Part shown: one piece after another, positions 9,063-48,102 of the stretch
Layout of the letters: the number at the start of each line of letters is the position of its first letter
Numbering within the stretch: the first letter of the stretch is position 1
Assembly (NCBI GenBank): GCA_905235805.1
Contig: CAJOMV010000016.1
Coordinates: forward strand, 1 to 64,000
DNA: 64,000 nucleotides
Direction of reading: 5' to 3'
Origin: an uncultured Ruminiclostridium sp.
GTDB taxonomy: Bacteria; Bacillota; Clostridia; Oscillospirales; Ruminococcaceae
The notes under the pieces: generated by a model
What the model was told of the DNA's origin: nothing
Seen by the model: only the letters and a program-made list of their open reading frames with translations
Database searches by the model: none
Position numbers and translations under genes: made by a program

Positions 9063-10112
9063 GTGACAGAACGTGATAACATGGACGGCGAGCTTGAACA
9101 GATCTTCCGCTTGTTTTTTGATGAGGTGCCAAGCTCATTTTGGAATATCAATACAAGCAGGGGAGACGGTGATTTCAGAGAAACGGTCATTGTTAAGACC
9201 GTGTCGGGCAATAAATATGTGATAAAGCTCGCGGATAATGATTTTACATTCCCCGATAAGATAAAAGTGTGGCAAAGAACAGTGCGGGAGTATATCGACC
9301 TCGGATATTACTGCCCTCGGATATACTGTGACAGGAACGGGAGCTTCCCGTATGCAGAGTATGGCGGGCACAGATGCGCTGTGTATGCGGAGGAATTCTC
9401 ACCGTACGCGTCAATTGAAGACAGGGACACCGATGAAGGCGAATGGGACACCGCCGCCTATGACAAATACAGACCCGATATCTGGAGAATGACCGCGAGA
9501 ATAGCGGCAAAATACCTTGACTATACGGGATATCCGTCGGGGTACTGTCTGTTTGAGACCTTCTGCCCGAGCGATAAGACCGATGAAGTGCTCGAAGAGG
9601 CGCTGAAATGGAGGGAGTACACAAGAACGCTGCCCGACGGATTTCAGGAGCAGGTACAAAGGATATGGGAGAAGTGGGCGGAAAACAGAGCGGAGCTTGA
9701 GCCGCTGTATAAAAAGCTGCCGACCTCTGTGTTCCAGGCGGATCTGAATTCCACAAATGTACTTGTTGACGGAAACGACAGGTTTGTCGGGATATACGAC
9801 TTCAATCTCTGCGGGAAAGATGTTTTTCTGAATTATCTGATGCGTGAGAACGGCGGCGCCGACTTTGAGAAAGAGAGAAATACGATATGTGAAATGCTGA
9901 GGGTCGCGAGCGGGTATTATCATTTCTCGGAGCTTGAAAAAGAAGCGGCTTTGAAGCTGTACCGCTGCCTGAAGCCTTTATGGAACGGGGAGGAGCGTCT
10001 AAGGAAGCTGAAGGGATATGATGAGATAAAGGCGTTGCTTGATAAAACGGAGCACTGCCTTACCGCGGACATAGATTTCAGAAAATATATGGAACAGAAA
10101 AGTTATCGCTAA
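9063..10112 (+). CDS. Aminoglycoside phosphotransferase (APH)-like kinase-fold protein
   Basis: FQADLNSTNVLVDGNDRFVGIYDFNLCG catalytic/metal-binding loops; GTG start after GGGGTGA. Confidence 0.65.
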   Translation: MTERDNMDGELEQIFRLFFDEVPSSFWNINTSRGDGDFRETVIVKTVSGNKYVIKLADNDFTFPDKIKVWQRTVREYIDLGYYCPRIYCDRNGSFPYAEYGGHRCAVYAEEFSPYASIEDRDTDEGEWDTAAYDKYRPDIWRMTARIAAKYLDYTGYPSGYCLFETFCPSDKTDEVLEEALKWREYTRTLPDGFQEQVQRIWEKWAENRAELEPLYKKLPTSVFQADLNSTNVLVDGNDRFVGIYDFNLCGKDVFLNYLMRENGGADFEKERNTICEMLRVASGYYHFSELEKEAALKLYRCLKPLWNGEERLRKLKGYDEIKALLDKTEHCLTADIDFRKYMEQKSYR

Positions 10113-10136
10113 AGTTTTCGGGATTTCTGCCGATAT
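10110..10136 (+). promoter_or_regulatory. Sigma-28 (FliA/SigD) type promoter TAAAGTTT-N11-GCCGATAT
   Basis: Exact -35 octamer 10110-10117, 11-nt spacer, -10 at 10129-10136; -35 overlaps the preceding stop codon. Confidence 0.8.
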
Positions 10137-10177: not shown

Positions 10178-11053
10178 ATGAATATTTCAAGGATAGGAAG
10201 CGCCGCGGCGGAGATGACCGCGCACAAGGCGAAGGAGCAGGCGCGATATCTCAACGCCGGCGGCGAAACTACGGAGATAACAAGGATATCGGCAGGAAAT
10301 GACGCGTTCTCGCAGAAGCTCGCAGACGTGTTCAAAAGGGAGAACTCCGACCTGATACAGGGCTTGAGCGAGCTGTCGGACGAGGACAGAATGGAGATAG
10401 CGATGAATTCCTATTTTCAGATGCAGGGACGTGTCTATCAGGCGATAAACCGTGAGGAAGCCGATCTGAAAACCTTCAGCTCACTGTCGGACGAGAAGGC
10501 GCGCATCAGCTCCATGCTCGAAAAGGCTCAGGCGAACGGCGGCGGTATAGATACGTCCGACGGCGTGGAGCTCACCACCGAGGACATCTCGAAGCAGCTC
10601 GATGACGTGCAGAGCCGCATGGACGTGTTCCTCGCTCCCTACGGACGCGACGGGGAGGGTGCCGCAAAGTCGAGCGCCTTCAACGAGAGCGTCAGGAAGG
10701 ATTTCGCGGCGTATGCGAGCGTTTTCGAGGGAGTCACGGGACTGCGCAGCGAAGCGCTCGACGCTACCGCCGACCTGACCCTTCACAAGACCGACCGCGA
10801 CGAGAGCAACTACGCGCAGAAGGCGCAGGCTTCCATAAATGCCCTTAAGGAGCAGTCCGAGGGCTTGTCGTCGCTGAAAAAGGATCTCCTCTCGAGCTTC
10901 GGCAAGGATCCCGAGACCGAGAGGCTAAGCGACGAGGCTATGGTCAAGCTCGCGGTGTTTGAGTTCTTCCGCGAGAAATTCTCCTACGGCGGTACGCAGG
11001 AGGAGCTTGAGGAGCAGCTGAAGAGAATGTCGCTGCTCGACGCGAGAGCGTAA
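10178..11053 (+). CDS. Uncharacterised protein, 291 aa, predicted sigma-28 dependent
   Basis: ORF with SD GAAAGGAAATCACA-ATG, no recognised domain or signal peptide. Confidence 0.8.
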   Translation: MNISRIGSAAAEMTAHKAKEQARYLNAGGETTEITRISAGNDAFSQKLADVFKRENSDLIQGLSELSDEDRMEIAMNSYFQMQGRVYQAINREEADLKTFSSLSDEKARISSMLEKAQANGGGIDTSDGVELTTEDISKQLDDVQSRMDVFLAPYGRDGEGAAKSSAFNESVRKDFAAYASVFEGVTGLRSEALDATADLTLHKTDRDESNYAQKAQASINALKEQSEGLSSLKKDLLSSFGKDPETERLSDEAMVKLAVFEFFREKFSYGGTQEELEEQLKRMSLLDARA

Positions 11054-19345: not shown

Positions 19346-19372
19346 TAAAGTTTTTCCCATATCTGACGATAT
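19346..19372 (+). promoter_or_regulatory. Sigma-28 type promoter TAAAGTTT-N11-GACGATAT
   Basis: -35 19346-19353, spacer 11, -10 19365-19372 (one mismatch to the other two). Confidence 0.7.
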
Positions 19373-19409: not shown

Positions 19410-20003
19410 ATGGATATGGGAAACATCGGCGGGAGCTTTGCGCGCCCGCAGTACACCTCGCAGAAGCCCGCTAAGCGCACGGATGCCATGAAGCTCGCGG
19501 AGGCTCTGAACGCTCAGGCGGGACAGGCTGCCGAAACTCCGGAGGAGATGAGGCTCCGCGAACAGCAGGAGAGGGAAGCCCGCAAGGCTGCCGAAGAGGA
19601 GGAGCGCCGCAAGAAGCTCCAACAGAAGCAGCAGGAGAAGCAGGAACAGCTCGCAATGCTGAAACAGGAGCTCGAGAATTCCAACGAACAGGCGGAGGCG
19701 ATCGGAGACGAGTTCAAGGTCTACGCCCGATGCCTTACCATCGCTTCGCGCATTTCCCGCGGCGACACTGTCCCTCTCAAGGATATGAAGTACCTCGCGG
19801 AGAACGAGCCCGACCTGTTCAAGCAGGCAATTCTGCTCCGTATGCCCAACGACCACCCGAAAAAGCATAAAAGCGTCCTCGACGATGACGAGGAGCAGCA
19901 GACCGAGCAAACGTCGGAAAGCGGCGAGAGCGCGGCTCCAGAGGTGTCGCAGCCCACGGAACAGGCTCCCGGGATCCCCGAGGAGATAGCGGCAGAGGAA
20001 TAG
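19410..20003 (+). CDS. Uncharacterised coiled-coil protein, predicted sigma-28 dependent
   Basis: Charged helical region EEMRLREQQEREARKAAEEEERRKKLQQKQQEKQEQ; no signal peptide. Confidence 0.75.
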   Translation: MDMGNIGGSFARPQYTSQKPAKRTDAMKLAEALNAQAGQAAETPEEMRLREQQEREARKAAEEEERRKKLQQKQQEKQEQLAMLKQELENSNEQAEAIGDEFKVYARCLTIASRISRGDTVPLKDMKYLAENEPDLFKQAILLRMPNDHPKKHKSVLDDDEEQQTEQTSESGESAAPEVSQPTEQAPGIPEEIAAEE

Positions 20004-44907: not shown

Positions 44908-44954
44908 AAGCCCGGTCAGCAAAACGACATACTGTCGTTTTGCTGACCGGGCTT
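44908..44954. terminator. 22-bp perfect stem terminator AAGCCCGGTCAGCAAAACGACA-TAC-TGTCGTTTTGCTGACCGGGCTT
   Basis: Perfect inverted repeat following the 3' end of the paralogue operon, A-run (U-run on - strand). Confidence 0.85.
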
Positions 44955-44961
44955 CTCATAT

Positions 44962-45969
44962 TCATATTTCAAGCTCTGAAAACTCCTCCGCTTTCTTGTC
45001 GGTCACCTTCGCAGCGATCACCGCCGTCATTGCGTCATAGCCCGCCTTGCCGCTGTCTGCGGGCTCAGCCGTGCCGGAAGCGCCTCCCTCGCGCTCCTCC
45101 TCCGCTTTCAGGTGCTCGGCGTACAGCTTCACAAGCGCCTCTATCATCGACTTGTAATCCTTGCCTCCGTCCTCTGCCCGGAGGCGCTCCCAGTTCATTG
45201 CGTACCACTCCATGCTGCCGCGGCGGTTGTTGTATTTTGCTTCGTACCGCTCGGTGCTGTACTTTGTGGAGCGCTCCGCAACTCCCTTCAGCAGCCGCTC
45301 GACGTTTATGCCGTTGTCGCCGTCCTCACGGAAATAGCTGTACCGGAGCACCGTGGCGATATCGTCCGCCATAGCCAGCGCGGTGTGGTAATCCATCATT
45401 TTCTGTTCCTCATACGGACACTGGACCCTTCCCTTGACCTGTGAGTAAGCCACTTCGCCGGTATCGGGGTCTATGGTGAACATATCGTAGTCCAGCGCGC
45501 AGGGTGCGCACCACTCGCCGCCCTCCCACCGGGAATAGCGGTCTATCTGCTGTTCAAGTGCCTGTCGGAGAGGGATCCCTTCTTCGAGAGACGTCCGTAT
45601 ATATCCGACAAACTCATCGAGCCCGCCCTCGGCTATCGGGACTTCCAGATACTTCCCCGATTTCTCCATTTCTACATGGGACATTATGATATCATGGAAC
45701 TTACTGCTGTATTCCTCGTCCGGGAGCTGCCCCAGCATAGTTATCGGCTGCTGCAGCTTATGCGCCGCCGACACGACATACATGGCTTCGAGCTCCGGGT
45801 CTATCGACAGGTCGTATTCCGCAGCCGCCATGAGTGAGTTCGCGCCCCTCACCTCGCTGTACGAGAACGCCGCCTGCAAAGCCATACCGAAATTCCCGCC
45901 GCTGCTGTCTGTGCGCGCAGCCGGGGTGTAGCCTGTGTTCAATGATGTGTTGAGTGTTACCGCGTCCAT
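44962..45969 (-). CDS. Uncharacterised protein, paralogue 3 of sigma-28 operon
   Basis: FGMALQAAFSYSEVRGANS, SAAHKLQ, LRYSYFREDGDN, YSTERYE; SD GGGAGGAAAC. Confidence 0.8.
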   Translation of the reverse strand: MDAVTLNTSLNTGYTPAARTDSSGGNFGMALQAAFSYSEVRGANSLMAAAEYDLSIDPELEAMYVVSAAHKLQQPITMLGQLPDEEYSSKFHDIIMSHVEMEKSGKYLEVPIAEGGLDEFVGYIRTSLEEGIPLRQALEQQIDRYSRWEGGEWCAPCALDYDMFTIDPDTGEVAYSQVKGRVQCPYEEQKMMDYHTALAMADDIATVLRYSYFREDGDNGINVERLLKGVAERSTKYSTERYEAKYNNRRGSMEWYAMNWERLRAEDGGKDYKSMIEALVKLYAEHLKAEEEREGGASGTAEPADSGKAGYDAMTAVIAAKVTDKKAEEFSELEI

Positions 45970-45980
45970 GTTTCCTCCCG

Positions 45981-46955
45981 TCATACCGCCATTTCCGTTA
46001 TCCCGTCCGTGATGTTCATCGACAGTCTCGCGGCAATGCCGTCCGCTGTCAGAGGGGACTCTTCGATATTGTCCGGCGTTTCGTCCTCCCGCAGGTCAAG
46101 CCCCTCATCAACAAGCCCGCAGTGCTTATCTATCATATCGAGCAGGGTGTCCAGCGCGTCCTCGGCTTTTCTCTCCAGCATTTCAAAATAACTCTTCCAG
46201 GCGTCATTCTCATGTGCCTCGATCTCCGCGTCGTTCAGCGGAATAAACCGGTCGGTATTGTAGTTCATCTGCTTTATCTCGCCGAGTACGGCGTTGACTG
46301 CTGCCGGGTCATCGCTGTCCTGACGGAAGTATGTGTATCGCATGAAGGTAGCAAGGTCATCGGCTAACGCCAGTGTCGCGGTGATATCGAGGTCATGCTC
46401 CGCGGGTGTTGCGCCGCAGTATACCTGTCCCCGGCGCTGCCTTGTGGTAACGTGCTCGATATCGCCGGTCTCGGTATTGACCCACATCGAGTCACAGATG
46501 TTGATATCCACGAATTTCCCCACATGACCGGACGTGTATCTGCGGGACTGCTCCAGAAGCGCGTCCTTCAGCGACACACCGTTGCGCTGCGCCTCCGAGA
46601 GTCTGTCAAGCAGCTCCGGCAGCTCGTTCATGCCGACCGGGACATTCACATATTTGTCATCCGTGTAGAATTCCCGCTTATCGCCCGAAAGGTCGAGCTT
46701 CTCCTCCGCCTCCCAGTACGCGTCCACGCCCATAGCCTGACGGGTAGAGCGCGGGAGATGATATTGATGCGCGGAGACGTGGACATACATGCTCCTCAGG
46801 TCGGTGTCGCCGAGAGAGCCTACCGCCTTTTCTATGCCCTTCGGCGCGTACAGGCTCTGCAGGGCAATGCCGAAATCGGCTGTTTCTTTTGCCGGTGTTG
46901 TTCTGCGGTTTGCTGTAATATTCTGCGTTGTGCTGTTGATCGTTATTGTGTTCAT
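45981..46955 (-). CDS. Uncharacterised protein, paralogue 2 of sigma-28 operon
   Basis: FGIALQSLYAPKG, VSAHQYHL, MRYTYFRQDSDDPA, YNTDRF. Confidence 0.8.
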   Translation of the reverse strand: MNTITINSTTQNITANRRTTPAKETADFGIALQSLYAPKGIEKAVGSLGDTDLRSMYVHVSAHQYHLPRSTRQAMGVDAYWEAEEKLDLSGDKREFYTDDKYVNVPVGMNELPELLDRLSEAQRNGVSLKDALLEQSRRYTSGHVGKFVDINICDSMWVNTETGDIEHVTTRQRRGQVYCGATPAEHDLDITATLALADDLATFMRYTYFRQDSDDPAAVNAVLGEIKQMNYNTDRFIPLNDAEIEAHENDAWKSYFEMLERKAEDALDTLLDMIDKHCGLVDEGLDLREDETPDNIEESPLTADGIAARLSMNITDGITEMAV

Positions 46956-46966
46956 ATTTCCTCCCG

Positions 46967-47929
46967 TTATATTGCAATTTCAGCCAGCTCCGTCTCATTT
47001 GTTTTACTTACAGCTATCTTTGCTGCCATAGCCGCGACGGTGAGCGACGAGCTGCCAAAATCATCGTTCTCCGTTTCACGCTGCTGTTCAGCCTTGAAAT
47101 GGCGGTCAAGAAGTTCGAGAAGTGAATCAACCATATCATTACGAGGTTCATCATCAGAACCAAGCTTTTCCTGCATCATAACATACCATTCGTCCGAATG
47201 TATTACCGAGTCGTCCCACATCGGATCAAAGCGTTCAGTATTATAACAGTTTGAACGTTCACATATCCCGTTGATAAGTGCCTGAACCTTTGCGGGATCA
47301 TCTGATTTCTCTTTAAAATAAGTATATCTCATTACCGTGGTAAGGTCATCTGCTATCGCCAAAGACGTAAGTATATCCATATTACTGTCGGCTACAGAAC
47401 CATAAGCATTACGGTTTTTTGTATGTGCGACCTCGACCATACCGGTATCAGGGTCAATAGTGAAGAACTCACCGTGATTTAGGTGTGTAACATCGCCATA
47501 ACTGTCGAAATGTTTTTGCAGTACATCTCTGAGCGAATCGCCGTTTGCAAGTCCGTTTTGCAGCTCTTCGACAAATTCACTGAATTTCCCCGGGTCGATA
47601 CGCACGTTGATACAGTCACCCTTCTGAGAAAGTTCAAGATATTTTTCTCTTTTTTCATCAAATGCTTTATCGTATTCGTTCATCGATGCAATGCCAGATT
47701 GACCTGTCACAAGTTGCAGCTTATGCGCGTTTGACACAACATACATATCCTCAAGCTCGTCGTCGAGCATTTCCAAAGCATTTGACGATATGGCATTAAC
47801 GCCCCGCACCTCGCTGTACGAGAACGCACTCTGCAAAGCTATGCCGAAATCGGCTGAGCTGCCCGGCTGTTCGGTTCTGCGGCTTAACGCGATACTCTGT
47901 GCGGTACCGTTTATCATAACAGTATTCAT
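46967..47929 (-). CDS. Uncharacterised protein, paralogue 1 of sigma-28 operon
   Basis: FGIALQSAFSYSEVRGVNAI, VSNAHKLQ, MRYTYFKEKSDDPA, YNTERF; start 47929 with SD GGAGGG. Confidence 0.8.
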   Translation of the reverse strand: MNTVMINGTAQSIALSRRTEQPGSSADFGIALQSAFSYSEVRGVNAISSNALEMLDDELEDMYVVSNAHKLQLVTGQSGIASMNEYDKAFDEKREKYLELSQKGDCINVRIDPGKFSEFVEELQNGLANGDSLRDVLQKHFDSYGDVTHLNHGEFFTIDPDTGMVEVAHTKNRNAYGSVADSNMDILTSLAIADDLTTVMRYTYFKEKSDDPAKVQALINGICERSNCYNTERFDPMWDDSVIHSDEWYVMMQEKLGSDDEPRNDMVDSLLELLDRHFKAEQQRETENDDFGSSSLTVAAMAAKIAVSKTNETELAEIAI

Positions 47930-47970: not shown

Positions 47971-47997
47971 ATATCGGCAGAAATCGTGAAAACTTTA
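47971..47997 (-). promoter_or_regulatory. Sigma-28 type promoter TAAAGTTT-N11-GCCGATAT
   Basis: AAACTTTA 47990-47997 and ATATCGGC 47971-47978 on + strand, 11-nt spacer. Confidence 0.8.
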
Positions 47998-48024
47998 GCG
48001 TTTTCGCAAAATTTACAGTCAACT

Positions 48025-48053
48025 ATTGACAAAAACAAAGTATTGTAGTATAA
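48025..48053 (+). promoter_or_regulatory. Sigma-A promoter TTGACA-N17-TATAAT for suf operon
   Basis: ttgacaaaaacaaagtattgtagtataat. Confidence 0.8.
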
Positions 48054-48102
48054 TATACCATACTATTTTAATAGATATTATGGATATAATAGGAGAACTG
48101 CT

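What the first reader, a model, noticed from the sequence alone, without database searches (positions are those of the whole stretch)
47971..47997. Sigma-28 (FliA/SigD) consensus promoter driving the three-paralogue operon
Seen: TAAAGTTT-N11-GCCGATAT on the minus strand, essentially the textbook sigma-28 consensus (TAAAGTTT-N11-GCCGATAA). It is followed by three unknown genes and a 22-bp terminator, and lies back-to-back with the suf promoter. Established: sigma-28 controls late flagellar/chemotaxis genes. No flagellar or chemotaxis gene is in this window, so the regulon appears to include non-structural unknowns.
Basis: partly seen in the sequence, partly recalled or inferred. Interest (0 to 1): 0.75.

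Follow-up and report, generated by a model that had tools for sequence, protein, structure and literature searches.

The report
Flagellar promoter for unknown protein operon
A gut or rumen bacterium switches on three related proteins of unknown function with the same genetic switch it uses to build the tail of its flagellum, and every genome searched that has these proteins also has a flagellar export machine, so they are probably flagellum-linked accessory proteins that may leave the cell.

Summary
A perfect sigma-28 site, TAAAGTTT-N11-GCCGATAT, lies at 47997-47971 (minus strand), 41 nt before the ATG of a three-gene paralogous operon that ends in a 22-bp terminator. About 1e-4 such sites are expected per window by chance. 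There are three in this window and ten in the genome, against none in the reversed control. All ten lie upstream of and in line with a gene; three head flagellar genes (two flagellins; flgM-flgN-flgK-flgL). A matrix trained only on flagellin and flgM promoters ranks the three window sites first. Six of the ten promoters drive genes with no full match to a known family. The three paralogues belong to a small new family; all 12 searched genomes that bear it have FlhA (33% background). The proteins have a disordered, acid-poor, polar N-terminal tail and a confidently predicted core with no match in Pfam, NCBIfam, the PDB or viral models. Relatives use sigma-28 in two separate branches and sigma-A in others. 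Best reading: a real SigD/FliA promoter for flagellum-linked accessory proteins, possibly exported through the flagellar type III apparatus (inferred).

The parts
47971..47997 (-). sigma-28 (SigD/FliA) promoter: -35 TAAAGTTT 47997-47990, 11-nt spacer, -10 GCCGATAT 47978-47971; GC directly before the -35, as in 33 of 43 such sites
   Evidence: exact consensus; score 37.2 with a matrix trained only on flagellin/flgM promoters, next non-sigma-28 position in the window 9.1; flanks match the clade's extended motif
46967..47929 (-). first paralogue of the operon (320 aa); ATG 41 nt after the -10
   Evidence: orthologues about 80% identical in rumen MAGs; no Pfam or NCBIfam match
45981..46955 (-). 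second paralogue (324 aa), 33% identical to the first
44962..45969 (-). third paralogue (335 aa from the ATG with a GGGAGG site), 38% identical to the first; the ORF can also be read from 45984
44908..44954 (-). intrinsic terminator, 22-bp stem, 3-nt loop, T-run
   Evidence: and sequence
10110..10136 (+). second exact sigma-28 site, TAAAGTTTTCGGGATTTCTGCCGATAT, 41 nt before the gene at 10178
   Evidence: a 79% identical orthologue with an exact site at the same 41-nt distance in another genome (L074)
10178..11053 (+). 291-aa protein of unknown function under sigma-28
   Evidence: no Pfam or NCBIfam match
19346..19372 (+). third exact sigma-28 site, TAAAGTTTTTCCCATATCTGACGATAT, 37 nt before the gene at 19410
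19410..20003 (+). 197-aa highly charged protein of unknown function under sigma-28
48026..48054 (+). sigma-A promoter TTGACA-17-TATAAT of the divergent suf genes (starting 48103)
   Evidence: 12 of 12 matches

Best explanation
The site is a working SigD/FliA (sigma-28) promoter. When the hook is complete and FliA is freed from its anti-sigma factor FlgM, FliA-RNA polymerase transcribes this three-gene operon together with flagellin and flgM-flgN-flgK-flgL. The products are flagellum-linked accessory proteins of a small new family: a disordered, polar, acid-poor N-terminal tail followed by a compact mixed helix/strand core. Their likely use is outside the cytoplasm, as late substrates of the flagellar type III export gate (secreted, or lodged at the filament or cap), by analogy with the Fed proteins of Campylobacter. 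Shown here by sequence: the site, the sigma factor, the shared promoter class with flagellin and flgM, the co-occurrence with FlhA, and the absence of known family or fold matches. Inferred from established biology: transcription and its timing. Inferred and less certain (about 0.4): export. The confidence given is for the promoter and the flagellar co-expression, not for export.
For: Ten exact sites, none in the reversed control, all upstream of and in line with a gene, 27-232 nt away. The same motif heads two flagellins and the flgM-flgN-flgK-flgL operon. A matrix from flagellin/flgM promoters only scores the three window sites 36.7-37.7; simulated windows peak at 19.6. FliA is over its cut-off. 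In the genus, exact sites occur in the three genomes with FlhA and not in the two without. All 12 searched genomes bearing the family have FlhA, against 100 of 299 in the taxonomic family. Orthologues in five rumen MAG loci keep a one-mismatch site at the head of their operon, and a distant member (L062) has an exact one 46 nt upstream. In L054 a FliD_C-like gene (25.5 bits, cut-off 25.4) lies just upstream of the family operon. The N-terminal 20 residues of the sigma-28 unknowns are richer in S/T/N/Q than window controls (7.8 against 3.9, p = 4e-5) and poorer in acid (1.0 against 2.5, p = 0.014), like the FlgM of this genome. The model has residues 1-55 disordered and the core 57-235 mostly confident.
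Against: No expression data exist. A weak sigma-A-like element overlaps the site (TTCACG-18-TATAAT, 10 of 12), and several family members in other flagellates have sigma-A-type promoters and no sigma-28 site (L058-L061, L064, L065), so sigma-28 control is not essential to the family's function. Disordered polar N-termini are not specific to export. The FlhA co-occurrence rests on a few related lineages, and the three paralogues are not independent points in the N-terminal test. The FlgM of this genome is identified by gene order and finds no match in Pfam at E 0.01.
Confidence: 0.85

Rival explanations
1. The operon is sigma-28 controlled, but the proteins act inside the cell (for example as regulators, chaperones or signalling proteins of the motile state) and are not exported. 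This is a variant of the best explanation and shares its promoter part.
For: Mostly confident globular core with no secretion-system family match; members under sigma-A-type promoters in other flagellates suit a role not tied to late assembly.
Against: FlgM-like polar N-terminal tails shared with the other sigma-28 unknowns; linkage in L054 to a FliD_C-like gene.
Confidence: 0.4
2. The operon is transcribed mainly from an overlapping sigma-A promoter (TTCACG-18-TATAAT at 47990-47961), and sigma-28 adds little.
For: 10 of 12 matches; relatives use sigma-A-type promoters.
Against: The -35 is poor; the full sigma-28 site has the clade's extended flanks, and in the relatives L053-L057 the sigma-28 site is kept at 15 of 16 while the overlapping sigma-A-like match falls to 9 of 12 or is absent.
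Confidence: 0.1
3. The match is a chance or non-functional site, as for intragenic FliA sites described in E. coli.
For: FliA is known to bind sites without a clear role in E. coli (own knowledge; the mapping paper PMC4183435 was listed but not read).
Against: Expected 9.5e-5 per window; all ten genomic sites precede a gene in the right orientation; the site is kept in relatives.
Confidence: 0.03

Closest known systems
SigD regulon of Clostridioides difficile and Bacillus subtilis (PMC3865298)
   Same: A FliA-type sigma factor drives flagellin, flgM and some non-flagellar genes from TAAA...CCGATA-type promoters.
   Different: In C. difficile the consensus is loose (TAAA and CG separated by 15-18 bases, 11 genes and operons). 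Here ten promoters are near-identical (TAAAGTTT-N11-GMCGATAW) and most drive unknown, lineage-specific genes.
Fed proteins (flagellar co-expressed determinants) and the flagellar-dependent secretome of Campylobacter jejuni (PMC5223770)
   Same: Non-flagellar proteins under sigma-28, co-expressed with flagellin; the paper says the Feds depend on sigma-28 for production and secretion.
   Different: No homology was sought or is claimed; secretion is not shown here; the host is an uncultured gut/rumen member of the Clostridia.
Sigma-28 flagellin promoters of Eubacterium siraeum, Roseburia and E. rectale (PMC3720852)
   Same: Predicted taaa-17-ccgatat promoters in front of the E. siraeum flagellin gene; the fliA, flgF, flgG, cheC, cheD order of this genome (flgF, flgG and cheC by inspection) resembles the arrangement described for E. 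siraeum.
   Different: The promoter analysis in the passages read covers flagellin genes only; non-flagellar targets are not described there.

Membership tests
sigma-28 (SigD/FliA) promoter | -35 TAAAGTTT, spacer 11, -10 GMCGATAW | tested here: met
   16 of 16 positions
sigma-28 (SigD/FliA) promoter | genome encodes a FliA-type sigma factor | tested here: met
   C58:8698-9345, 207.1 bits, cut-off 189.6; sigma-70 regions 2, 3 and 4
sigma-28 (SigD/FliA) promoter | same motif in front of late flagellar genes of the same genome | tested here: met
   two flagellins and flgM-flgN-flgK-flgL
sigma-28 (SigD/FliA) promoter | anti-sigma factor FlgM present | tested here: inconclusive
   First gene of the sigma-28-flgN-flgK-flgL operon, 92 aa, no Pfam match at E 0.01; a near-identical orthologue scores 13.2 bits against FlgM (cut-off 25) and the G133 relative passes with 32.9; NCBIfam gives nothing for the own protein
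sigma-28 (SigD/FliA) promoter | FliA-dependent transcript starting 7-10 nt after the -10 | not testable with these tools
   needs RNA
Fed-type exported, sigma-28 co-expressed proteins | sigma-28 promoter | tested here: met
   as above
Fed-type exported, sigma-28 co-expressed proteins | found together with a flagellar export apparatus | tested here: met
   FlhA in 12 of 12 searched family-bearing genomes, background 100 of 299; few independent lineages
Fed-type exported, sigma-28 co-expressed proteins | secretion through the flagellar export apparatus | not testable with these tools
   needs culture; the N-terminal composition fits but is not specific

The most novel reading that the evidence does not exclude
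The sigma-28 regulon of this rumen/gut clade is dominated by several lineage-specific families (the three paralogues, the genes at 10178 and 19410, the related C97 and C132 genes, FliD_C-like proteins) that use the flagellum as a secretion device, with the paralogue family as a new fold whose control by sigma-28 has been gained or lost more than once.
Probability: 0.3. Interest if true: 0.72.

Novelty: new member of a known kind. Interest (0 to 1): 0.47.

Why it matters
It turns a single promoter motif into a short, testable list of late-flagellar genes of unknown function in uncultured rumen and gut Clostridia. If the proteins are exported, the flagellum in these commensals would be a secretion system as well as a motor, as reported for Campylobacter.

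Tried and rejected
Pfam, NCBIfam and PDB sequence searches gave no family for the paralogues; a lone Colicin_D hit in one distant member (E 4.7e-4, 20.9 bits, cut-off 25; 1 of 16 members) was set aside as chance. Foldseek against the PDB and viral models gave nothing with E below 0.001. The first structure run with four sequences was poor (mean pLDDT 56); the second with sixteen is better (67.6). A relaxed genome scan for weaker sigma-28 sites found only background. The 1-mismatch site at C113:17872, in front of a response-regulator-like gene, remains ambiguous. A search for papers on DUF6033 found none.

Full report
Observation. The minus strand of 47971-47997 is TAAAGTTTTCACGATTTCTGCCGATAT: a -35 TAAAGTTT, an 11-nt spacer and a -10 GCCGATAT. 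The first gene starts 41 nt further on with a GGGAGG ribosome site. Three genes follow closely (47929-46967, 46955-45981, 45969-44962) and end at a 22-bp hairpin with a T-run at 44954-44908. The suf genes start on the other strand from a perfect TTGACA-17-TATAAT at 48026-48054 (suf named by inspection of the proteins, not by a family search).

Chance. A third-order Markov model of the window expects 9.5e-5 exact sites per window and 0.0036 per genome. There are three in the window and ten in the 2.43-Mb, 80.7% complete genome, with none for the reversed pattern. A relaxed pattern with one mismatch adds only background: 26 matches, of which 11 without mismatch are the exact set plus one ambiguous site, against 18 in the control. 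A matrix trained only on thirteen flagellin and flgM promoters of this and related genomes ranks the three window sites first (36.7-37.7); the next position scores 9.1 and the maximum over twenty simulated windows is 19.6. Bases outside the pattern are also conserved among 43 distinct exact sites of the clade: GC just before the -35 in 33, T after it in 35, C and T before the -10 in 34 each. The site in question has all of them. These flanks were not used to find the sites, so they are independent support.

The sigma factor and its regulon. FliA is present and over its curated cut-off (C58, 207 bits). On that contig it is followed by two rod-type genes, a cheC-like gene, cheD, a FapA-family gene, then a sigma-28 site and a DUF6033 gene. 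FlhA is present. The ten sites head: two flagellins; an operon of a FlgM by position, FlgN, FlgK and a flagellin-domain FlgL-like protein; the DUF6033 gene; and six genes or operons with no full match to a known family (window 10178, 19410 and the three-gene operon; C97; C124; C132). C124 and the second gene at C97 resemble the C-terminal part of the filament cap protein FliD just below the Pfam cut-off; two relatives of that family pass it (C113 at 33.9 and L054 at 25.5 bits, cut-off 25.4). The first gene at C97 and the C132 gene are related to each other (43% over 117 residues). The own FlgM finds no Pfam match at E 0.01, while the relative in G133 passes the FlgM cut-off.

Conservation. In the genus, exact sites occur in the three genomes with FlhA (own 10, G015 9, G133 1) and in neither genome without it. 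The 10178 gene has a 79% identical orthologue with an exact site at the same 41-nt distance; the C97 gene has three such orthologues at 145-153 nt, as here. Those loci were fetched because they carry the site, so they show conservation where it exists, not its frequency.

The paralogue family. The second and third proteins are 33% and 38% identical to the first. Only the own genome and G015 have the family among 299 genomes of the taxonomic family. A scan of 85,462 species genomes gave 13 loci, all from metagenome-assembled Clostridia, most with titles naming rumen or gut samples. All 12 searched genomes with the family have FlhA, against 100 of 299 in the taxonomic family. The lineages are few, so this is suggestive, not independent, evidence. 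Promoters differ. L053-L057 have a one-mismatch sigma-28 site in front of an operon that holds the family gene or genes; L062 has an exact site 46 nt before the gene; L058-L061, L064 and L065 have no sigma-28 site and sigma-A-type matches of 9 to 12 out of 12; L063 has neither. On the tree L062 groups with sigma-A members at 100/100 support, apart from the window's clade, and the labels need two changes.

Protein anatomy. AlphaFold with 16 sequences gives a disordered N-terminus (1-55), a mostly confident core (about 57-235) and a loose C-terminus. No match was found in Pfam, NCBIfam, PDB sequences, PDB folds or viral models. The first 20 residues of the nine sigma-28 unknowns (the DUF6033 protein counted with them) carry 7.8 S/T/N/Q on average against 3.9 in 35 window proteins (p = 4e-5) and fewer acids (1.0 against 2.5, p = 0.014), like the FlgM of this genome. 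One of the 35 controls was in fact the 19410 protein read from a later start, which works against the difference; three of the nine are paralogues and so not independent.

Mechanism. Established for FliA systems and assumed here: FlgM holds FliA until the hook is finished, then leaves through the export gate, and FliA transcribes the late genes. On that model the operon is a late-flagellar operon. The proteins may follow flagellin out of the cell; the tail composition, the FlhA co-occurrence and the neighbouring FliD_C-like gene in L054 fit this, and nothing shows it. The sigma-A-driven relatives mean that late timing is not essential to the family.

Comparison. The promoter meets the sequence features of the sigma-28 class; FlgM alone is inconclusive, and the transcript is untested. 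The idea of sigma-28 co-expressed, flagellum-exported non-flagellar proteins is known from Campylobacter (Feds; PMC5223770), and SigD regulons with non-flagellar targets are known from C. difficile (PMC3865298). Sigma-28 flagellin promoters were predicted in E. siraeum (PMC3720852). What is new is the protein family and the size of the unknown share of the regulon.

Noticed in passing
10110-10136 (+) and 19346-19372 (+): Two more exact sigma-28 sites in the window, each 37-41 nt before a gene of unknown function (10178-11053, 19410-20003).
   Followed up: yes
43 exact sites in loci of the clade; in the window 47998-47999 before the -35: An extended sigma-28 motif: GC directly before TAAAGTTT (33 of 43; own genome 9 of 10), T after it, CT before GMCGATAW, and A/T tracts upstream.
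   Followed up: partly
L026:12000-12710, L028:7475-8485, L030:11854-12534, L054:33-725: A family of short proteins resembling the C-terminal part of the filament cap protein FliD; the first two lie behind sigma-28 sites, the last just upstream of the paralogue operon of L054.
   Followed up: partly
L058-L065: Members of the same protein family have sigma-A-type promoters in some flagellates and sigma-28 sites in others, with two changes needed on the tree.
   Followed up: partly
L030:7873 (G000:C113:17872): A one-mismatch sigma-28-like site 17 nt before a response-regulator-like gene; may be chance.
   Followed up: no
L036:8852-9208: In G015 a shortened family copy (118 aa) sits directly before the full-length one.
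   Followed up: no
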